Origin: an uncultured Flavobacteriales bacterium
GTDB lineage: Bacteria > Bacteroidota > Bacteroidia > Flavobacteriales_E > Vicingaceae
Length of the DNA: 64,000 bases
Assembly (NCBI GenBank): GCA_905479915.1
Contig: CAJQOH010000014.1
Location: 1 to 64,000 of the forward strand
Direction: 5' to 3'
The notes under the pieces: model-generated
The model's database searches: none
Told to the model about the DNA's origin: nothing
What the model saw: only the letters and a program-made list of their open reading frames with translations
Translations under genes and position numbers: made by a program
In this document: positions 1 to 10,177 of the stretch, piece after piece
Position numbering within the stretch: position 1 is the stretch's first letter
Layout of the letters: every line of letters starts with the position of its first letter

Positions 1-1701
1 ATTAATGTAACGTCTACCAATTATATTGCTGATGACCCTAATTTAATGGATAGGACATTAGGGAAGAAAGCTTTTGAACTCTCCAATCATTTAGGAAATG
101 TACTAGCAACAGTTAGCGATAAAAAGTTCTTGAATCAAACATCAGGAAATGCAAAAGTGTATGCATCATCTTATGAGAATAATGATGGAGGAATATTTGT
201 TAATGGCAGTTATCTTGGAATGCAGAGTACAACACAAGTAAATACCAATACTTATAGTGTAGAACAGAATGAAGCAAGTAGTCCTATAGGACCTAAAGCA
301 ATAATACCTTTAAAATCAGGAGATGTAATAAACAGTACATCAGTTTATTTTTACTTTGAACTTCCTCAAATTGGATCAAATGATGGGCAATTGGTTAGAT
401 CCCTTGTAGATGCAAATGGAGTAGCATTGTACAAAGATGCAGTAGGAACAACAACTAAAGAAGTAGGATTACCACTTTATTTCCCAGCTTCTTGGCAACA
501 ATTAAGCATTGGAGGAACAACAACTATACAGAGTACTTATTATTATGCCGATGGAACAGCTCTTCCAACGTGTGACGCTGTTTATTTAGAAGTTTATACA
601 GAATGTACAGATGGTACAGTATGGTTTGATGATATAAGCTTTAGTGTAACCCCAGCAGTAGAAAGCTATTACACAGCAGATATACAAACTAGACAAATGT
701 ATTATCCGTTTGGTATGGTTATGCCTAATGGGGATAATCTTAATATGGCTGACCATACTTATGGATTCCAAGGTCAGTTAAATGATAATGAGGTTAAAGG
801 TGCTGGTAATTCTGTGAACTTTAAGTATAGAATGCACGACCCAAGATTGGGTAGGTTCTTTGCGGTTGACCCTCTAACAGGAAAATATCCTTATTACACT
901 CCTTACTCTTTTAGTGGGAATCGAGTTATAGATATGATTGAATTAGAAGGTACTGAGCCAACATCACCTAAATATCAATGGTCAGCAAGTGCTGGATTTG
1001 AGTATAAAGGTAACTTTTATAACGATGGCTCAGCTTTGAGTAAGGTTGAAGGTTGGTGGGTTCATCAAAGTTTAGATTCAGATGCTGATGAAATTCATAT
1101 GTTTTGGTCTCCATCAGATGGGGTGTGGAAGGAGTTTACGCCTGTAAAACCAGAGCCCTTAGCTCCAACTGTCACTAGAATTGCCATAAGAGCAATTGCA
1201 ATCCCTGGGATAGCTGTTGCTGGAGCAACGATTCTACCAACATTACTGCCAGAAATAGCAATTGTAAGTGAGGCAGTTGCTCTTGAAACAGCAGCGGCAA
1301 CTATTCCTGTCGTTGATATGGTAGCCTATACAGTTGCTTCGAACCCTGTGGCTACAGGAGCAGTTTTGGAATTCACATCTGGAGTTTTATTAAATGAACC
1401 TATGGAGTTGTCATATTCTTCGGGAAGCCCAGCAGCTGCCTTAATTGGACAAACTATTGGTATTATTAGAACTTTCATTGACGAAGATAAAGCACAAGAT
1501 TTAGAATGTCTTATGTGTCCAGATTTTAATGATGTACAAACATTGCCACAGGATTTTCCGAGAACTGATGCAACCAATGTAGTTCCAGTAACAATTAGAG
1601 CTATCAATACAACAGCAAGGTCGGTTTCTAATCTAAGTAAAGCACCAGCAGCAACAAAAGCAGCAAGTTCTATTGCAAAATCATCTCCTAGATTTTGGTA
1701 A
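1..1701 (+). CDS. RHS/YD-repeat protein, C-terminal part (5' end outside window)
   Basis: The reading frame is open from base 1, so this is the 3' part of a larger gene; the first in-window ATG at 46 is not the true start. The segment carries an RHS-type HLGNVLATVSD motif near the edge, then the RHS-associated core at about 721-957 (MPNGDN, YGFQGQ, RMHDPRLGRFFAVDPLTG, YSFSGN). After the core comes a unique tip (958-1701) with several hydrophobic Ala/Ile/Val-rich helices and no toxin motif I recognise. In this family the conserved part forms a shell around a variable C-terminal, often toxic, tip. Export route and tip activity are unknown. The following small genes could be its partners (inference). 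Confidence 0.85.
   Translation: MNVTSTNYIADDPNLMDRTLGKKAFELSNHLGNVLATVSDKKFLNQTSGNAKVYASSYENNDGGIFVNGSYLGMQSTTQVNTNTYSVEQNEASSPIGPKAIIPLKSGDVINSTSVYFYFELPQIGSNDGQLVRSLVDANGVALYKDAVGTTTKEVGLPLYFPASWQQLSIGGTTTIQSTYYYADGTALPTCDAVYLEVYTECTDGTVWFDDISFSVTPAVESYYTADIQTRQMYYPFGMVMPNGDNLNMADHTYGFQGQLNDNEVKGAGNSVNFKYRMHDPRLGRFFAVDPLTGKYPYYTPYSFSGNRVIDMIELEGTEPTSPKYQWSASAGFEYKGNFYNDGSALSKVEGWWVHQSLDSDADEIHMFWSPSDGVWKEFTPVKPEPLAPTVTRIAIRAIAIPGIAVAGATILPTLLPEIAIVSEAVALETAAATIPVVDMVAYTVASNPVATGAVLEFTSGVLLNEPMELSYSSGSPAAALIGQTIGIIRTFIDEDKAQDLECLMCPDFNDVQTLPQDFPRTDATNVVPVTIRAINTTARSVSNLSKAPAATKAASSIAKSSPRFW
550..614 (+). repeat. 65-bp direct repeat, copy 1 (inside RHS gene)
   Basis: This stretch is identical over all 65 bases to 2598-2662. 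Here it lies within the intact RHS reading frame, about 100 bp before the MPNGDN core motif. Confidence 0.95.
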
Positions 1702-1712
1702 ATTTGTGAACT

Positions 1713-2123
1713 ATGTGGGTAAGAAAAAAGATGGAAGAAATTAAAAAGGAGAAAGAAGGGTTTAAGCCTTCTCTCTCTGCACCTACGGTTGTTTTTATTT
1801 GTACATTAATAGCTATTATCGTTCCAAAAGTTACTGGTATTTCAAGGTCTATTTATAACTCGAAACCAGTTGGTCTTATTGATTTATTGCCTATGATACC
1901 AAAGATATTAGCTATTGCATTGGGTTTGTTTGGGTTAACTTATTTAGTGCAATTTATCAGAAAAAAAAACTTTTTAGTAGAGAAAACTACCACAGTTATT
2001 TGTGATGAATGTAATATGAAAAAAACAGATAATGGAATTAATACTTGCGAGTGTGGAGGTAGTTTTGTTAATATTGACAAGATGAAATGGGTAGAGGAAG
2101 ATTCTAAAAAGGAAAATAAATGA
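1713..2123 (+). CDS. Small membrane protein with C-terminal zinc-ribbon-like motif
   Basis: The predicted 136-residue protein has a Lys/Glu-rich N-terminus, two hydrophobic segments (about residues 25-42 and 63-83) and a soluble tail with two cysteine pairs (CDEC and CEC-GG) that resemble a small zinc ribbon. A start at 1731 (MEEIKK) is as plausible as 1713. It begins 12 bp after the RHS stop and overlaps the next gene by ATGA, so the three are probably co-transcribed. I do not recognise the family. Its position directly behind a variable RHS tip makes an immunity or accessory role possible, but this is positional inference only. Confidence 0.7.
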   Translation: MWVRKKMEEIKKEKEGFKPSLSAPTVVFICTLIAIIVPKVTGISRSIYNSKPVGLIDLLPMIPKILAIALGLFGLTYLVQFIRKKNFLVEKTTTVICDECNMKKTDNGINTCECGGSFVNIDKMKWVEEDSKKENK

Positions 2124-2593
2124 GGTTTATAGTATTGTCTATTGTTATGATTGTAGTGTTTGTTTGTAGTGGGTTTGCTCGTAACAATAACACCTTGTCT
2201 CAAACTTATACCGAACAGGAATTGGTAGTGAAAAAAGTTATGAAACATCTTGAATTAAATGCTGTTGGAGGTGTTTACGAATATTTTGAGCATTGGGATA
2301 GGGTAAAACCTATATTAGCTGAGAGTGTTTTTGAAATAGAGAAGATTAAAGAACGAACAAAACTTTCTATAGTTATGGTGTTGGATGGTGAATATAAAGT
2401 TTACAGATGTCGTTATTCAAACGGTAGTGAAACTTTATTTCAAATAGATTTTCATTATCTTCGAAATTCCAAGAATAGTTCACTTATATTTAATGTCAGC
2501 ACTAAAAATGCTAAAATTTTAGCAAAAGAAAAAGCGTTAAGAATGAATAATAACACAATTCCACCTCCACCACCTAAGTTGAAGAATAGATAA
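2120..2593 (+). CDS. Secreted hypothetical protein
   Basis: The 157-residue product starts with a clear signal peptide (RFIVLSIVMIVVFVCSGFA) and has no lipobox. The mature part is mixed alpha/beta without a recognisable motif and ends in a proline run (IPPPPPK). The start overlaps the previous stop in an ATGA arrangement, which supports translational coupling and fixes the start. It may be a periplasmic partner of the RHS tip upstream (inference). The gene ends only 4 bp before the duplicated RHS sequence at 2598. Confidence 0.7.
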   Translation: MRFIVLSIVMIVVFVCSGFARNNNTLSQTYTEQELVVKKVMKHLELNAVGGVYEYFEHWDRVKPILAESVFEIEKIKERTKLSIVMVLDGEYKVYRCRYSNGSETLFQIDFHYLRNSKNSSLIFNVSTKNAKILAKEKALRMNNNTIPPPPPKLKNR

Positions 2594-2597
2594 TCCA

Positions 2598-2662
2598 GAT
2601 GGAACAGCTCTTCCAACGTGTGACGCTGTTTATTTAGAAGTTTATACAGAATGTACAGATGG
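2598..2662 (+). repeat. 65-bp direct repeat, copy 2 (recombination junction)
   Basis: This is an exact copy of 550-614, in the same reading frame as the orphan RHS tip that follows. Relative to copy 1, a net 99 bp is missing between here and the MPNGDN motif, which keeps the frame. The frame has a stop just upstream (2580-2582) and no start until 2670. Confidence 0.95.
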
Positions 2663-2669
2663 CTCGGTA

Positions 2670-3659
2670 ATGCCTAATGGGGATAACTTAGATATGGCTG
2701 GACATACGTATGGGTTTAATGGCAAAATGAATGATAATGAAATCCATGGGAATGGAAACAGTTTAGATTTCGGAGCAAGGATGTATAACAGTAGACTGGG
2801 AAGATGGTTTGCGACTGATGATTATGAGCATATTTTCACGAGTGTTTCTCCTTATGCATTTGTAAGTAATAATCCAATTAGATACAAAGATATTGGAGGG
2901 ATGTGGCCTGGAGAAGTAAATTTGATGATTATAATAGATGATTTTGCAAAACCATTTGAAGGTGTTACAACATCTGGAAGCTTTACTGTTATAAGAGCAA
3001 GGTCAATGGCGAAAGCACTTGCGTTTATGGAAGTTTATAATGTTGAAAAAAATATAGATAATTTAGTCTTTGAACATCATGGATATGGTAAAGAAGCTGG
3101 TAATAATTCAGGTTTGTTTACAAGTGATAGAGACGCTATTATAGATATTTTACTTAAAAAAGTTGTAGAAGAACCTGGTTTTTATGATAAAGGTTTTGAA
3201 GAACCCTTGGTGCACTTAAATGCTTTGGGTAAAATATTAGGTTATTTAAATGATAATTCGAGTATAGTATTTGGTGCTTGTGGTGGTGGTCGAGAAGATA
3301 AATTAAGGGAGTTATTGTTAAAATATATTATTCAAAAGAATCCGTATAAATCTTTTACATTCTATCTTAATCAAACCAATTCAACATTTAAGACTGATAT
3401 TACTAAGAAAGATAAAGCTAGTGACCAATCTGGTTCAGCTTTTGAACCAACTTTTAATCAGAATTTAATAAGAGATATTGACTATGAATTTGGAGCATTT
3501 ACAAAAACTACTAATGAAGGTCTAGAAAATGGGGTTTTCAACATCAAAATAAGTAATTCAATTATTGGTAATGTTTTAAAAATTATAAATGTAACAAAGC
3601 CTGTAAGAGCTGCTAAAACTATTAAGAGAGAAGTTTATCATTCTGTTAGATTTCTTTAG
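2670..3659 (+). CDS. Orphan (displaced) RHS core with variable tip; HG...AC dyad in tip
   Basis: Residues 1-75 repeat the RHS core (MPNGDN, YGFNGK, RMYNSRLGRWFATDD, SPYAFVSNNP), so this is a displaced C-terminal cassette rather than a full RHS protein. ATG 2670 is the first start, but homology continues in frame back to 2598. The unique tip (about 85-329) contains a strand followed by EHHGYG (second His is residue 137) and a strand followed by FGACGGG (Cys204). This is the His-Gly and Ala-Cys arrangement seen in clan CD cysteine peptidases such as caspases and clostripain. That assignment is a motif-level inference. Without the N-terminal shell, expression and delivery are doubtful; it may be a silent reservoir. 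The lipoprotein gene downstream may be its immunity partner. Confidence 0.75.
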   Translation: MPNGDNLDMAGHTYGFNGKMNDNEIHGNGNSLDFGARMYNSRLGRWFATDDYEHIFTSVSPYAFVSNNPIRYKDIGGMWPGEVNLMIIIDDFAKPFEGVTTSGSFTVIRARSMAKALAFMEVYNVEKNIDNLVFEHHGYGKEAGNNSGLFTSDRDAIIDILLKKVVEEPGFYDKGFEEPLVHLNALGKILGYLNDNSSIVFGACGGGREDKLRELLLKYIIQKNPYKSFTFYLNQTNSTFKTDITKKDKASDQSGSAFEPTFNQNLIRDIDYEFGAFTKTTNEGLENGVFNIKISNSIIGNVLKIINVTKPVRAAKTIKREVYHSVRFL

Positions 3660-3711
3660 TTTTGAGTAAACTATGTTTTAATAATGTATTAAGGAATTCA
3701 AAATATTACCT

Positions 3712-4254
3712 ATGCTGAAAAAAAATAAATTAACATTATTGATGGTTGTAATATCATTATTATCCTGTAATGAGTTTGAAAACTCTCTTAAAATGGAGGC
3801 AAAAGAATTACATAATACTGAATTTATCATTTATAAAGGAACAAATGAATTTAAAGAATTTGTAAATGATAAAACTGTTAATTATAGTGCTGAAATTGCA
3901 AAATTTAAAGATGATAATTTGGATAACTGCATTTTGAAGCATAACTGTGATAGTTTGAACTACAACTATTTAAAAGGAAGTGTAGAAATTGATTATTTTC
4001 ATTTATCATCTGGCTGTATGGATTTTATACCTAAGCTTGTTGTAAAAAAAAACTATTTAATTATAAAATGTCAAAGTATTTATAATGAATCAAATTATGT
4101 TTATGAAAGTGGTGTGTTAAAGTTTGTCGGAGAAAGTAAAGGTTGTAAAAATATTATGCATTGGAAGATTAATATTAGTAATCCTGAATTGGTCGATAAA
4201 AAAATATATTTTATGCCTAAAAAGAATGAAATTTATGAATTAGTTCAAAAATAA
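3712..4254 (+). CDS. Hypothetical lipoprotein, possible immunity protein
   Basis: The 180-residue protein begins with a type II signal peptide ending in a lipobox (SLLSC, Cys19), so it should be lipid-anchored in the envelope. The mature part is rich in Lys, Asn and Tyr, with four further cysteines in the middle (CILKHNC, SSGC). No family is recognised. It lies 52 bp behind the orphan RHS tip and is followed by a terminator, so tip and lipoprotein look like one transferable pair. An immunity role is inferred from position. Confidence 0.65.
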   Translation: MLKKNKLTLLMVVISLLSCNEFENSLKMEAKELHNTEFIIYKGTNEFKEFVNDKTVNYSAEIAKFKDDNLDNCILKHNCDSLNYNYLKGSVEIDYFHLSSGCMDFIPKLVVKKNYLIIKCQSIYNESNYVYESGVLKFVGESKGCKNIMHWKINISNPELVDKKIYFMPKKNEIYELVQK

Positions 4255-4256
4255 CG

Positions 4257-4281
4257 GCCACATTCCAAATGGCACTTTTGG
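4257..4281. repeat. Solo copy of the mobile-element end sequence
   Basis: This 25-bp stretch, containing TTCCAAATGGCAC at 4263-4275, matches the outer ends of the inverted-repeat element at 5036 and 6951. It looks like a footprint or remnant of that element inside the tail of the RHS cassette. Confidence 0.7.
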
Positions 4282-4309
4282 TTTTTAAAAAGGTTAAGAA
4301 TAATAGAGG

Positions 4310-4334
4310 CCTCCTAAATAGTAGGAGGTTTTTT
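4310..4334 (+). terminator. Intrinsic terminator in repeated cassette tail (copy 1)
   Basis: A CCTCCT/AGGAGG stem with a 7-nt loop is followed by six T. The wider tail (4287-4334) is repeated almost exactly at 4989-5035, after the next gene. Confidence 0.8.
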
Positions 4335-4364
4335 AATGAAATAAAATATAAAAAATAGATAAAA

Positions 4365-4952
4365 ATGAAGAATGTAATTATTGTAGTATTAAGTTTAGTA
4401 TTAGGAGTATCAACTTGTTTTGGTCAAAATGTTGGTTCAGGATCTTCTTGGAGTCCTACTGTTGATGCTAGACTAACTAAGTTTTCAAATAAATGGAAAG
4501 GTAAGGATAAAATTATTCATACTTGGGTGGTTAATAAATTTGGTTTTGCTGATTATGGTGTTTTGTATGAAATTACTGATACGTCAATAAACTTAGTCAA
4601 ACCTCGAAATTTGATGCAGAATGATATACCTGTTTTTGGAACTAACTATTCAAATATAAAACATTTGATTTTAAGAGAGGATAGAAGGAAAGGAAAGTAT
4701 ATTCTCAGAGGTATTCCTATAGGAGTTGTAGTTGGTCTTTTGGTAATGGCAGCTGCTATGCCTGATAATCAAGGCCGTTTGGGGCCAAGTCAAGGCGAAT
4801 ACTTGGCTTTTGGGGCTGTTGGAGGAGGAGCTGTCGGTATGTTAGGTGGTTTGTTTATCGGCTCTATGAAACTTAAAATTCCGATAAAAGGTAGTAAAAG
4901 TAACTTTGATAAAAGTAAAGAAAGACTTAGGGCTATATCTATGCAGAAATAA
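4365..4952 (+). CDS. Secreted/membrane hypothetical protein with glycine-rich hydrophobic segment
   Basis: The 195-residue protein has an N-terminal signal peptide ending near STCFGQ. A central domain of about 90 residues resembles a small beta-rich module and ends in a DRRKGK basic stretch. Residues 120-170 hold two hydrophobic, glycine-rich helices (GIPIGVVVGLLVMAAAM and FGAVGGGAVGMLGGLFIG) that could insert in a membrane as a glycine zipper. The family is not recognised. The gene sits between two copies of the same terminator tail, as if it were a separate cassette. Confidence 0.65.
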   Translation: MKNVIIVVLSLVLGVSTCFGQNVGSGSSWSPTVDARLTKFSNKWKGKDKIIHTWVVNKFGFADYGVLYEITDTSINLVKPRNLMQNDIPVFGTNYSNIKHLILREDRRKGKYILRGIPIGVVVGLLVMAAAMPDNQGRLGPSQGEYLAFGAVGGGAVGMLGGLFIGSMKLKIPIKGSKSNFDKSKERLRAISMQK

Positions 4953-4988
4953 ATAGCGACACTCAACTCACAAACATTATATTAGTTC

Positions 4989-5035
4989 AAAAAGGTTAAG
5001 AATAATAGAAGCCTCCTAAATAGTGGGAGGTTTTT
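4989..5035 (+). terminator. Intrinsic terminator in repeated cassette tail (copy 2)
   Basis: This is a near-identical copy of 4287-4334. The hairpin CCTCCT/GGGAGG (5012-5030, with one G-U pair) is followed by five T. It ends exactly where the left arm of the inverted-repeat element begins. Confidence 0.8.
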
Positions 5036-5245
5036 GGTCACATTCCAAATGGCACTTTTGATCTTATTTTAAATTTTTATTGCTGATTATCAGCGACTTA
5101 TGCTTTTGTAAAATATATTCTAAAATGGACTTCAAATACCTTTGAATATAAGAAAGTTTCTTAGAACGCATTAAAATAAGTCGTTTATGACCTCTTGTTC
5201 CAAATGGCACCTGGCTAGCTATCTGTAGCTTGTAGCTACAGACTA
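5036..5245. repeat. Left inverted-repeat arm
   Basis: This arm pairs with the reverse complement of 6742-6951, with scattered mismatches and small gaps. It contains two copies of TTCCAAATGGCAC and ends inward in the REP-like palindrome CTGTAGCTTGTAGCTACAG. Bases 4953-5281 hold no gene; this arm explains most of the stretch. Confidence 0.85.
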
Positions 5246-5281
5246 TTGTTTAAAACATTTAAATATAAATTGAGTGATTAA

Positions 5282-5826
5282 TTACAAATATTCAACTTTC
5301 AAGAGCCCTTCTTCTCCACAATAGTTTTTAGCACTACTGTAGATGTATTCTTCTGGTTTTTCTACCAATCCAGAAACTACAGGGTTCTGATGTATATACT
5401 CAATCTTTTGATCGATAAAGTAATTGCTATACAGCTCAACAGGATGGTTGTCTTGTTTCCAAAATTGATAGTCTTTATTCCTTTTATTGTTTAAACCTTT
5501 ATTTTTGAAAAGTTCCAACATCCAATCCTTTCTGCTTTCTCCAACTTCAGTTTTTATTGATTTAAGAATTTCCTTACTGGTAAATGTTTTGAAATCACGA
5601 ATTACAGCGCTTAACTCATTTTCTTTACAGGATAGTACGCAGTGTACATGGTTACTCATAATAACATAAGCATAAACCTTTAATCCTTTCTCTATCTGAC
5701 AATACAACAAACTGTCTATTAAAATATCCTTATAACGTTTTCGAGTAAATATATCTACCCAGTTAACTACTGTAAAGGTTAAATAATAAATTCCTTTTTG
5801 ATCTCGTATTTTATATCCTCACTCAA
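5282..5826 (-). pseudogene. REP-associated tyrosine transposase (RAYT, IS200-like), 5' end decayed
   Basis: The intact part (ATG at 5710) encodes VIMSNHVHCVL with the His-x-His metal motif of the HUH/Y1 transposases, followed by DFKTFTSKEI, the FWKQDNHPVEL motif and YIHQNPV, all typical of RAYTs. Family sequence continues upstream in the same frame (RDQKGIYYLTFTVVNW, DIFTRKRYKDI) but reaches a TGA near 5820 without an ATG. A TTG at 5826 would give the expected first residues only if one base had been lost just after it, so the start appears destroyed by a frameshift. A shorter protein from 5710 would lack the first beta strand of the fold. REP-like palindromes nearby fit its usual partner DNA. 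Confidence 0.75.
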
Positions 5827-5840
5827 AACTCTTTACCACC

Positions 5841-6530
5841 TTATTTCATTTTGATTTGCCAATTGTTCCATGAGAAATATAACAATACACTATAAGTTAA
5901 CATCTTTTCTGACTTGCTATAACAGATCGTTTTTCTAGATAATCGTTTAATATGGGTTCTTAAATTTAAATTATTACGTTCAATCTTATTGTTACGATAC
6001 CTCCTAGTATCATGGTCGATTGGACTAATCAAGTCAGGGTAAATTTGCAACTTATCTGTTACAATCTTTTTAGGCGATAACCGCTTTAATTTATCAATGA
6101 GCTTAGCTAAATTTTCTTTTGTTCTAGCCCCAATCACTACATCAACAACTTGATTCGTTTTTCTATTGATCGCATAAGTAATCCACTTCACATCTCGCTC
6201 TCTACAACTCGAAACATATGTCCACATTTCATCTACTTCATAAACTTGATTGTATTCAATTAATACTGGCTTCTTAACTTTAGATCCTAAATATTCGATC
6301 CTCTTTAATATCGTTTGTTTGGAATATCCTAAATACCTCGATAATGATGATATCCCCATCGATTCTGCATTTAAAAAGATAATAGACTTATCATCAATTT
6401 CATTATACAATTTATAAGTATAGGCTCTTAATTGATATTTACCACACCCCTTACACTGATAACGCTGCTTGCCATTTCTCACGCACTTTTTAATACAATA
6501 ACCAGTAGAACAATAAATACAATGATGCAT
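5841..6530 (-). CDS. IS1-family transposase
   Basis: The N-terminus has a zinc-ribbon (CIYC ... CKGCGKYQ) and a helix-turn-helix (SSLSRYLGYSKQTILKRI). The DDE-type catalytic part follows: YEVDEMWTYV, IVTDKLQIYPDL and IERNNLNLRTHIKRL-SRKT, the last being a hallmark of IS1 InsB. The frame is open to 6596, but I chose the ATG at 6530 because MHHCIYCS starts the zinc ribbon and the extra 22 codons lie in the REP-like palindrome. The length (229 residues) is normal for single-frame IS1-group transposases. It looks intact and could still be active. Confidence 0.85.
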   Translation of the reverse strand: MHHCIYCSTGYCIKKCVRNGKQRYQCKGCGKYQLRAYTYKLYNEIDDKSIIFLNAESMGISSLSRYLGYSKQTILKRIEYLGSKVKKPVLIEYNQVYEVDEMWTYVSSCRERDVKWITYAINRKTNQVVDVVIGARTKENLAKLIDKLKRLSPKKIVTDKLQIYPDLISPIDHDTRRYRNNKIERNNLNLRTHIKRLSRKTICYSKSEKMLTYSVLLYFSWNNWQIKMK

Positions 6531-6540
6531 AATTTTTAAT

Positions 6541-6590
6541 AATAGTCTGTAGTTCTGTAGCTGCAAGCTACAGACAGCTAACATAACGAA
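6541..6590. repeat. REP-like palindrome
   Basis: CTGTAGCTGCAAGCTACAG with flanking AGTCTGTAG repeats resembles the palindromes at the inner ends of both arms (5221-5245 and 6742-6771). Such palindromes are the usual recognition sequences of RAYT proteins. Confidence 0.65.
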
Positions 6591-6741
6591 TAACAAAATT
6601 CAGTTTCAAATATGATCTGACTAAATGTTCTGACACTGATTATTAATATGTACTAACACATATTTTTTAGATTTTGTAGAGTGTTAATACTTAGAGGATA
6701 TTATTTAGTTTGTAGCTATTTAGTCAGTAGCTGTATGTATT

Positions 6742-6951
6742 TAGTCTGTAGCTGCAAGCTACAGATAGCTAGCCAGGTGCCATTTGGAACAAGAGGTCAT
6801 AAACGACTTATTTTAATGCGTTCTAAGAAACTTTCTCATATCTAAAGGTATTTGAAGTCCATTTTAGAATATATTTTACAAAAAAATAAAGTACTGATAA
6901 TCAGTAATAAAAATTTAAAAAAGGACCAAAAGTGCCATTTGGAATGTGACC
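6742..6951. repeat. Right inverted-repeat arm
   Basis: Reverse complement of the left arm. The inner end is the REP-like palindrome CTGTAGCTGCAAGCTACAG. The outer end GGAATGTGACC abuts an RHS remnant. Bases 6597-6741 inside the element hold only AT-rich sequence and scattered AGTCTGTAG-like words; I see no gene there. Confidence 0.85.
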
Positions 6952-7165
6952 CACTTTCCCAAGGTTTCACAACAGGATCAAGATTCCATCTTCTTGCTGT
7001 TCTCGGATCATATTCCCAGAATGTTGCTGTGTAATGATTTCCTTCGCCCTTAATCTCACCATCACTTTCTTGTCCATTAAACCCATATCTATAGTCTCCG
7101 CTTGATGCGTGTCTATTAGGCATTAGAGAGACCATCTGGATAGTGATAGCCATTGAGGTTCAGTG
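6952..7165 (-). pseudogene. Inverted RHS core remnant
   Basis: On the minus strand a typical RHS core is readable: MPNRHASSGDYRYGFNGQE, GEGNHYTATFWEYDPR, RRWNLDPVVKPWES. It is cut off at the outer end of the right arm, and the frame runs on into the arm (GSHSKWHFW...) for about 36 codons. Upstream the expected YYPFGM motif is broken by a small indel (around 7120-7150). It lies opposite in direction to the RHS sequences at the left of the window, so part of this region has been inverted or joined from elsewhere. Confidence 0.8.
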
Positions 7166-7222: not shown

Positions 7223-8317
7223 TTAGGCCGATTTTACAGCTGCTATTTTATTAAAAAAGTTATCGGTTTCTTCGTCCATAAAACTCTGTGATAATTCTAC
7301 ATATCTAAAAAATTCTCTGCTATTTGCTGCATGACCCGAAATTTTACGAACCATATATTCTGGCATGCCTAAATTAAGCATATTTGTAATGGCTGTTCTT
7401 CTCATGGTATGTGTAGAAATATGATCAGATAATTTAAAATGAGTTTTCTTCTTAGGGTCTTTATATATAATAACTTGTTTTCCTCTTCTTTCTCTTGTTT
7501 TTATTAATTCAAAATCGTCTGGTATAAGTTTAGCAAAACGTTTTAGTTGTATGTCTAGATAGCCTACACTAACAGTTGGTAAGAATGTGCTTTGCTGGCC
7601 TTTGTACCTTTTTATAATGTCTATGGCGTATTCTGGCAATTTTATCGATGTTTTTGTTTTCGTTTTTTGTGATTTTACGTTTAAGTAGTAACTATTGTTT
7701 TGTATAACGAGGTTTTTTTTGGAAAGTTTTAATAAATCAGAAACCCTTAAGGCTACGGTACATCCAAATACAAAGATGTCTTTCGTTTTCTTTAAATTAT
7801 GTTTGGTAACTAGTGCATCAAATTCTTCGTTGTAAATGATGTAGTTTAGTTGTTTATGATTAAGCGTTATTATGTCAATCTCTTCTTTGGGCGCGTAAAA
7901 TGATTTATGGTAGCTACCTATATTAAGATGTCTTTCTTCGATTAAGTAGTTAAAGAATGTTCTATTTGTTTTAATAACATTGCCAACATAATTGTCATAA
8001 TAGCCCATTTTATTGTACATAAAAAAGGTAAATGATTTGTAGAATTTTTTCCAATAGTTAGCGGCTCTCACTTTTTCTGCTTGTGTAAGGTTGTCGGTAA
8101 TGTATAATTTTAGCTCAAAAGAAGATTGCTCGGCAAATAGTGTAATTATTCTTTTAAAATAAGTATAGGTTTTAACGGTAGAGTAGGTTAGGCGAGTTCC
8201 GTTCTTTTTTAATCTTTTTCCTGATGAAGAATCTTTTATAAAATCATCTAAAAGCTTAAAATATATTTCTTGGCTTAAGGTCTTGTCTTTTTTACGAATT
8301 TTAATAGTGGTTGCCAT
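7223..8317 (-). CDS. Tyrosine recombinase (phage-integrase family)
   Basis: The 364-residue protein has an N-terminal SAM-like core-binding domain (about 20-150) and a catalytic domain with the recombinase signature: Arg in CTVALRVSDLL, HTMRRTAITNML (His-x-x-Arg), GHAANSREFF and the nucleophile Tyr in FFRYVELSQ. All main catalytic residues are present, so it is likely active. It ends next to the RHS remnant and the mobile element and may have shaped this accessory region, although I could not find a convincing pair of att sites. Members of this family do site-specific DNA inversion, excision or integration. It is transcribed alone. Confidence 0.85.
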   Translation of the reverse strand: MATTIKIRKKDKTLSQEIYFKLLDDFIKDSSSGKRLKKNGTRLTYSTVKTYTYFKRIITLFAEQSSFELKLYITDNLTQAEKVRAANYWKKFYKSFTFFMYNKMGYYDNYVGNVIKTNRTFFNYLIEERHLNIGSYHKSFYAPKEEIDIITLNHKQLNYIIYNEEFDALVTKHNLKKTKDIFVFGCTVALRVSDLLKLSKKNLVIQNNSYYLNVKSQKTKTKTSIKLPEYAIDIIKRYKGQQSTFLPTVSVGYLDIQLKRFAKLIPDDFELIKTRERRGKQVIIYKDPKKKTHFKLSDHISTHTMRRTAITNMLNLGMPEYMVRKISGHAANSREFFRYVELSQSFMDEETDNFFNKIAAVKSA

Positions 8318-8400: not shown

Positions 8401-8874
8401 ATGAATACTTTTAATGCCATGAAGGCTGTCCTTACATCAATTATTTTCTCGCTTATTGTTAGTGTTAGTGGATTCTCTCAAGTTAGTTTTACCGGTTATT
8501 TGATGGATGCCGATGAGAATAAGATTAAGGATGTAGCTGTAAATTTATACAAGGGCAACGAAAAAGTTTCTACAGAAAAATGGTCAAAAAAGTTTGAGTA
8601 TGATTTGGAATTAGAAACCTATTATACTTTAGAGTTGGTAAAAGAAGGTTTTGTTTCTAAGCGTATAGCCATTTCTACATTTGAAGGAGATAAAGGGGCA
8701 GAGCCGTTTATGTTTGTAATGGAGCTGATTGCTAAAGAAGATGCTGTAAAAGGAATGGACGAAGATTATCCATCAGCATTAATAGAGTATAAGAAGAGAG
8801 AAGGATCGTTTAATTTTGATGTGCAGTATGCAAAGAATATCAAAAAGCAACAAAAGTTAGCGAAGAAAAAGTAA
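8401..8874 (+). CDS. Secreted protein with carboxypeptidase-regulatory-like (Ig-type) domain
   Basis: The 157-residue protein starts with a signal peptide; ATG 8401 follows AAGAGGAAAAC, an unusually good ribosome site for this genome, though Met7 (MKAVLTS) is possible. The mature part (VSFTGYLMDADENKIKDVAVNLYKG ... YTLELVKEGFVSKRI) resembles CarboxypepD_reg-like beta-sandwich modules of Bacteroidota surface proteins. The last 38 codons and the downstream sequence are duplicated at 9941-10177. No enzymatic motif is visible. Confidence 0.65.
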   Translation: MNTFNAMKAVLTSIIFSLIVSVSGFSQVSFTGYLMDADENKIKDVAVNLYKGNEKVSTEKWSKKFEYDLELETYYTLELVKEGFVSKRIAISTFEGDKGAEPFMFVMELIAKEDAVKGMDEDYPSALIEYKKREGSFNFDVQYAKNIKKQQKLAKKK

Positions 8875-8982
8875 GGCTAAAATCCTGACTTTCGCATAAA
8901 GATTCTAACCTTTTCGTATTCTGGAGAGTGTTTTCTATAAAACTCTATTTTATCACCATACATTTTTTCAGTAATAAAAGCA
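8762..8982. repeat. ~220-bp direct repeat, copy A
   Basis: The stretch holds the 3' end of the 8401 gene plus a copy of the 3' end of the minus-strand gene at 10056-10613. It is about 95% identical to 9941-10177, but copy A lacks about 15 bp after CATTTTTTCAG. The gene-free interval 8875-9161 consists of this copy plus AT-rich sequence with a small hairpin. Confidence 0.9.
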
Positions 8983-9940: not shown

Positions 9941-10177
9941 AAGATTATCCATCAGCATTAATTGAGTATAAGAAGAGAGAAGGGTCGTTTAATTTTGATG
10001 TGCAGTATGCAAAGAACATCAAAAAGCAACAAAAGTTAGCGAAGAAAAAGTAAGACTAAAACCCTGACTTTCGCATAAAGATTCTAACCTTTTCGTATTC
10101 TGGAGAGTGTTTTCTATAAAACTCTATTTTATCACCATACATTTTTTCAGTATTTACATTTTCAGTAATAAAAGCAC
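9941..10177. repeat. ~220-bp direct repeat, copy B
   Basis: Partner of 8762-8982. This copy joins a detached 3' end of the 8401-type gene to the intact 3' end of the minus-strand lipoprotein gene. It keeps the 15 bp (TATTTACATTTTCAG) missing from copy A. Confidence 0.9.

What the first reader, a model, noticed from the sequence alone, without database searches (positions are those of the whole stretch)
550..3659. RHS tip cassette displaced downstream by recombination in a perfect 65-bp repeat
Bases 550-614 and 2598-2662 are identical over 65 bp and in the same RHS reading frame. The second copy carries a complete RHS core and a different tip but no upstream shell or start codon before 2670. 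The net 99-bp loss keeps the frame. This shows exchange of C-terminal tips, with the old tip plus its partner genes kept as a silent spare.
Basis: partly seen in the sequence, partly recalled or inferred. Interest (0 to 1): 0.55.

Follow-up and report, generated by a model that had tools for sequence, protein, structure and literature searches.

The report
Detached spare RHS toxin tip
Behind a large secreted bacterial toxin-like gene sits a detached second tip, joined to a short copied piece of the main gene; this looks like an ordinary case of the known way in which bacteria swap the business ends of such toxins.

Summary
The 65-bp exact repeat (550-614 = 2598-2662) is real, in the RHS frame and far beyond chance. 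It belongs to a known kind of locus: an RHS polymorphic-toxin gene with an attached tip and partner genes, then a headless orphan tip module. Position 1 is a contig end; contig C21, sharing 75 exact bases, carries a 2275-aa shell. A second RHS gene of the genome (C20) is 311/327 identical over 388-714 and diverges after the PFG codons into an unrelated tip. Among 48 core/tip ends, mostly from other genomes of the order, 2 of 1128 tip pairs are alike. The 99-bp loss reads as a deletion at a TGG microhomology. The orphan copy matches the adjacent gene, not C20, at both differing sites. Tip exchange and an orphan module are supported. That tip 2 was the older, displaced tip is plausible but unproven: no relative of tip 2 was found in 45 order genomes or 394 genomes drawn from the class. 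'Silent spare' is inference. Displacement and orphan modules have been in print since 2009-2014.

The parts
1..1701 (+). C-terminal 566 aa of the main RHS gene (open at the contig end; first 75 bp equal the last 75 bp of contig C21, which carries a 2275-aa stop-free shell frame)
   Evidence: TIGR03696 over cut-off
388..714 (+). pre-core island, 311 of 327 identical to the second RHS gene at the end of contig C20; 40/75 columns just upstream (13 gap columns) and 145/243 just downstream (19 gap columns)
   Evidence: alignment
550..614 (+). repeat copy A (65 bp)
697..951 (+). RHS-associated core A
952..1701 (+). attached tip 1 (249 aa); one partial relative in the order, the N-terminal part of a tip in G040
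1713..2123 (+). partner gene of tip 1: 136 aa, two hydrophobic stretches and paired cysteines (by eye), only sub-threshold family matches, function unknown
2120..2593 (+). partner gene of tip 1: 157 aa, hydrophobic N-terminus (by eye), sub-threshold match to the TipC immunity family (E 0.00071, 19.8 bits, cut-off 30)
2598..2662 (+). repeat copy B, starting 4 bases after the stop of the partner gene
2663..2669 (+). junction: the G-S-V codons of the core follow directly on the 65-bp copy; 99 bp (33 codons) present after copy A are absent; TGG microhomology (read from the alignment)
2661..2900 (+). RHS-associated core B without its YYPFG start
2670..3659 (+). orphan tip 2 reading frame from its first ATG/GTG/TTG; the open frame runs from 2583
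3712..4254 (+). candidate immunity gene of tip 2: 180 aa, lipoprotein-like N-terminus (by eye); no match in Pfam, NCBIfam or PADLOC
6845..7159 (-). third RHS core fragment, opposite orientation, truncated where the 210-bp repeat element begins

Best explanation
This is an RHS polymorphic-toxin locus with one attached tip (tip 1) plus its partner genes, followed by a detached orphan tip module (core B, tip 2, candidate immunity gene). Most likely a new core-tip-partner cassette was inserted by recombination in the pre-core part of the shell gene, in the manner of the published C-terminal displacement model, so that the former tip and a 65-bp piece of shell were left downstream; a 99-bp in-frame deletion at a TGG microhomology happened with or after it. 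The orphan has no shell, no start before 2670 and no recognisable promoter, and is probably not delivered by itself. Recombination between the two 65-bp copies would remove 2048 bp and fuse the shell in frame to tip 2. Shown: the repeat, its frame, the missing 99 bp, and tip turnover in this genome and the order. Inferred: the microhomology route, the direction of the event, silence, re-use, toxicity and immunity.
For: Exact 65-bp repeat in frame. The orphan copy carries the main gene's base at both of the 2 in 65 sites where C20 differs. C14 and C20 genes are 311/327 identical up to PFG, then 145/243, and their tips are not among the alike pairs. Of 48 core/tip ends, 2 of 1128 tip pairs are alike at E 1e-4 against 1072 of 1128 core pairs (the cores were picked by a profile, so their likeness is partly by construction). 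21 of 48 have fewer than 60 codons of open frame before the core, 3 of these open at a contig or locus edge. Two other arrays hold exact blocks of 63 and 119 bp before different tips. 47 of 49 matched places in the order have no internal stop. Model and precedent: PMC2935791, PMC3150448, PMC3967940 (passages).
Against: No genome was found in which tip 2 sits on a shell, so the order of events is unproven. In 9 of 12 pairs compared within six arrays the longest shared exact stretch is only 10-23 bp, so long exact homology is not the rule. The displacement model alone does not explain the 99-bp loss. The orphan's junction falls at the G of PFG, where several other orphan cores also begin, which fits addition of a ready-made cassette as well. 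Immunity and toxicity are untested, and tip 2 matches no family.
Confidence: 0.65

Rival explanations
1. The orphan was added downstream: tip 2 with its core and immunity gene came in behind tip 1's partner genes, carrying or picking up a 65-bp piece of this shell by illegitimate joining or partial duplication. Tip 1 is the older resident.
For: The orphan begins 4 bases after the partner gene's stop, and its junction sits at the G of PFG, near where several orphan cores of other arrays begin, as if a ready-made cassette had been attached to the 65-bp piece at TGG.
Against: Needs a separate source for a 65-bp in-frame piece of this very shell; displacement gives it for free (inference).
Confidence: 0.2
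2. Leftover of a tandem duplication of the RHS gene: a second copy with another tip lay downstream and lost its shell by deletion, keeping 65 bp of shell.
For: Two RHS genes with near-identical pre-core islands exist in the genome; duplication of the rhs locus was proposed for Salmonella (PMC3967940, passages).
Against: Needs two deletions (shell up to 2598, and the 99 bp). No other piece of shell was found between 1702 and 2597: best blastn match to the C21 shell is 13 bp at E 0.20, no tblastn match up to E 1.
Confidence: 0.1
3. Assembly error joining two RHS loci of the genome or of two strains.
For: The genome is a 74-contig draft and several RHS loci lie at or near contig ends; C14 and C21 touch by 75 bp only.
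Against: Contigs C33 and C67 overlap by exactly 141 bp, as if words of about 141 were used (inference); a 65-bp repeat would then be spanned. The orphan copy differs from C20 at two sites, so it is not a copy of that contig.
Confidence: 0.05

Closest known systems
rhs C-terminal displacement in enterobacteria (Jackson et al. 2009, PMC2935791; 12 of 20 passages seen)
   Same: Attached tip, detached tips with core fragments of varying length downstream, identical sequence at the exchange, non-homologous tips
   Different: Not an enterobacterium; here the exact shared stretch is short (65 bp), lies before rather than in the core, and 99 bp are missing after it; the direction of the event is not shown here
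Orphan cdiA-CT/cdiI and rhs-CT/rhsI modules (Poole et al. 2011, PMC3150448; 12 of 37 passages) and the evolved Salmonella fusion (Koskiniemi et al. 2014, PMC3967940; 12 of 33 passages)
   Same: Orphan without start or export signal, followed by a small gene, sharing a stretch with the main gene through which a deletion could fuse it (522 bp at 95% in Salmonella)
   Different: Toxicity, immunity and fusion were tested there, nothing was tested here; no match to the T6SS sheath family PF05943 in this genome
TANFOR polymorphic toxins of Bacteroidetes (PMC7073777; 12 of 19 passages)
   Same: Large proteins with exchangeable C-terminal tips in genomes with T9SS; this genome has 124 Por_Secre_tail matches at E 0.001 or better (150 of 185 candidates scored)
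   Different: The C21 shell shows RHS repeats and a sub-threshold DUF6443 match, and no NCBIfam match up to E 0.1, TANFOR included

Membership tests
RHS/YD-repeat polymorphic toxin | RHS repeats and RHS-associated core before a variable tip | tested here: met
   RHS_repeat (38 bits, cut-off 22) on the C21 shell, TIGR03696 over cut-off on both window frames. That the C21 shell belongs to the window gene rests on a 75-bp exact overlap.
RHS/YD-repeat polymorphic toxin | Conserved shell or core with unrelated tips in related loci | tested here: met
   2 of 1128 tip pairs alike; C14 against C20
RHS/YD-repeat polymorphic toxin | Tip is toxic and the next gene gives immunity | not testable with these tools
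   no family match for the tips; a sub-threshold TipC match for 2120-2593 only
Orphan rhs-CT/rhsI module | Core fragment plus tip without start or export signal, followed by a small gene | tested here: met
   frame 2583-3656 without ATG/GTG/TTG before 2670, gene 3712-4254; absence of an export signal judged by eye
Orphan rhs-CT/rhsI module | Same tip found attached to a full gene elsewhere (seen in many, not all, published cases) | tested here: not met
   no tip 2 relative in 45 order genomes or 394 other genomes drawn from the class; the one genome-contig hit is a pattern-selected 70-residue stretch of an ATPase-like protein (label by eye) with no RHS context looked for beyond its frames
C-terminal displacement by recombination | Identical sequence at the exchange in attached and detached copies | tested here: met
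   65 of 65, but only 148 of 238 columns in the core after it
C-terminal displacement by recombination | Direction: detached tip is the former attached tip | tested here: inconclusive
   no genome with tip 2 to compare
TANFOR polymorphic toxin | N-terminal TANFOR domain (TIGR02542) | tested here: not met
   0 NCBIfam families up to E 0.1 on the C21 shell; note that the same scan also gave no YD-repeat model there, so its sensitivity on this shell is limited

The most novel reading that the evidence does not exclude
RHS tip cassettes in this lineage may be punctuated and moved by a low-copy REP-like element. A 210-bp element has 4 full-length copies in the genome; its left end begins within 2-5 bases of the stop of a small gene behind an RHS core-and-tip frame in two places (window 4256, a 25-bp partial copy; C33:3820, full) and abuts a truncated third RHS core (window 6951). 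A REP-associated transposase gene (5282-5710) lies between two inverted copies. Against it: one full copy (C20:1746-1957) lies among genes without RHS features, and the C20 tip module has only a 51-bp partial copy more than 100 bp behind its small gene.
Probability: 0.05. Interest if true: 0.45.

Novelty: new member of a known kind. Interest (0 to 1): 0.15.

Why it matters
It adds a clear case of tip exchange outside the published enterobacterial examples, with a junction sharp enough to suggest the microhomology of the deletion and a defined 2048-bp excision that could be looked for in long reads. It does not open a new question: displacement, orphan modules and their reactivation are in print.

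Tried and rejected
Tip 2 looks by eye like a clan CD (caspase-like) cysteine peptidase (FEHHGYG ... FGACGGG; motif recalled; caspase-like tips are described in passages of PMC3482391). This could not be tested: the best PDB sequence match has E 0.19, and the single-sequence model has mean pLDDT 31.4, so no fold search was made.

A distant tip 2 relative: the only genome-contig hit (1 of 53 pattern stretches) is a short stretch of an ATPase-like protein in a Candidatus Liptonbacteria genome; rejected as a pattern-selected chance match.

Promoter for 2670: sigma-70-like hits in 1500-5300 are not clearly above shuffles (26 against mean 19.8, sd 4.1; one 9-of-12 hit lies at 2461-2490). The Bacteroidota-type TAnnTTTG (recalled consensus) does not occur in 2400-2700. 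No support for a separate start, but no proof of silence.

An earlier tip comparison kept a truncated tip 2; it was repeated with the longest copy of each and gave the same two tip pairs. Two of 50 ends, with 24 and 38 aa of tip, were dropped before the count of 48. PHROGs was not searched.

Full report
Observation. The repeat is exact over 65 bp, 550-614 and 2598-2662, 2048 bp apart, in the RHS frame in both places. Chance cannot give it (expected about 4e-27 pairs in the window). The core that follows is 1949 bp apart, hence the 99-bp difference.

Setting. The window is the start of contig C14 of a 3.57-Mb, 74-contig genome. The RHS frame is open at position 1 because the contig ends there: its first 75 bp equal the last 75 bp of C21, where a 2275-aa stop-free frame with RHS repeats begins with an N-terminus that looks by eye like a signal peptide. 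The genome has no match to the T6SS sheath family PF05943 (0 of 1 genome; of 14 control genomes only E. coli rings, so a divergent Bacteroidota-type sheath could be missed). It has 124 matches to the T9SS tail family at E 0.001 or better (150 of 185 candidates scored). A Sec and outer-membrane route is therefore likelier than T6SS, and the organism is probably a Bacteroidota (both inferences; no call names it).

Junction. Aligned with the second RHS gene at the end of C20, the main gene is 311/327 identical over 388-714, 40/75 columns just upstream and 145/243 just downstream of PFG. The orphan carries the 65 bp, then GGC TCG GTA ATG, the G-S-V-M that follows PF in the C20 core. The 33 codons from TVWFDD to YYPFG are missing, and both presumed broken ends read TGG, so a microhomology deletion would explain the in-frame loss (my reading of the alignment; the undeleted orphan is not held). 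At the 2 of 65 sites where C20 differs, the orphan has the main gene's base, so the piece comes from this locus or was homogenised with it. Identity is a weak clock: at the C14-C20 divergence zero differences in 65 bp has P about 0.04. Beyond the repeat the only further match of orphan and main gene is in the core (87.8% over 49 columns in blastn; 46% over 137 aa in tblastn from the repeat on), and no shell piece was found between 1702 and 2597.

Relatives. The order as held is one family of 46 genomes including this one. 26 of 46 have pre-core/core matches, at 49 places, 47 without an internal stop. From the loci in hand I collected 50 core/tip ends, 48 with at least 60 aa of tip: 17 have 400 or more aa of open frame before the core, 21 fewer than 60 (three of those open at an edge). 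Tips are alike in 2 of 1128 pairs, cores in 1072 of 1128 (cores were chosen by a profile). Two or more core-bearing frames in a row occur in G016 C115, G041 C18, G043 C5, G030 C52 and this genome's C33; in C33 the second frame keeps 131 aa before its core, so it is not a bare orphan. In all 12 pairs of such frames within six arrays the longest exact shared stretch is 65 bp in the window, 63 in G041, 119 in G030, and 10-23 bp in the other nine. Short exact homology before unrelated tips thus recurs but is not the rule. Tip 2 has no relative in 45 other order genomes or in 394 other genomes drawn from the class, at least 14 of which are of the order; tip 1 has a partial one in G040.

Function. 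Neither tips nor partner genes have a family match over a cut-off; 2120-2593 has a sub-threshold TipC immunity match. No ATG, GTG or TTG lies in the orphan frame before 2670, and promoter scans show nothing clearly above background. The orphan is thus probably not delivered on its own; whether it is transcribed is unknown.

Comparison. Jackson et al. 2009 (PMC2935791, 12 of 20 passages) proposed this displacement, through homologous recombination with circular intermediates. Poole et al. 2011 (PMC3150448, 12 of 37 passages) described orphan modules without start signals and a natural deletion in a Yersinia cdi locus that fuses one to the main gene. Koskiniemi et al. 2014 (PMC3967940, 12 of 33 passages) gave evidence for such a fusion in evolved Salmonella, with 522 bp at 95% shared. 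PMC3482391 (12 of 37 passages) describes recombination with standalone toxin cassettes in general. Searches for this in Bacteroidetes or flavobacteria (14 of 14 papers listed, 12 of 29 listed, no paper) showed no title or abstract start about orphan RHS arrays there; unlisted papers and papers outside this library may hold it. The finding is a member of a known kind.

Noticed in passing
window 5036-5245 and 6742-6951; C20:1746-1957; C33:3820-4030: A 210-bp repeat element with 4 full-length copies and 7 partial matches in the genome; the two window copies are inverted (93%) around a REP-associated tyrosine transposase gene (5282-5710 minus; 74.8 bits, cut-off 80, but Y1_Tnp over its Pfam cut-off) and an IS1-family transposase gene (5841-6596 minus).
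   Followed up: partly
window 5222, 6554, 6745; C20:124642; C33:4007: Palindrome T(N)TGTAGCTNNNAGCTACAGA: 8 places in the genome, these 5 at contig stretches that carry RHS tip modules, the other 3 at C20:1749, C21:78469 and C44:31980.
   Followed up: partly
window 4284-4333 and 4986-5035: 50-bp sequence with a hairpin, repeated at 94% on both sides of the small gene 4365-4952.
   Followed up: no
window 8762-8973 and 9941-10152: 212-bp direct repeat at 98%, spacing 1179, including a 90-bp exact stretch.
   Followed up: no
L066 (G030 C52) 1-119 and 7298-7416: 119-bp exact repeat before two unrelated RHS tips, a longer case of the same phenomenon in a relative; the first copy lies at the contig end.
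   Followed up: no
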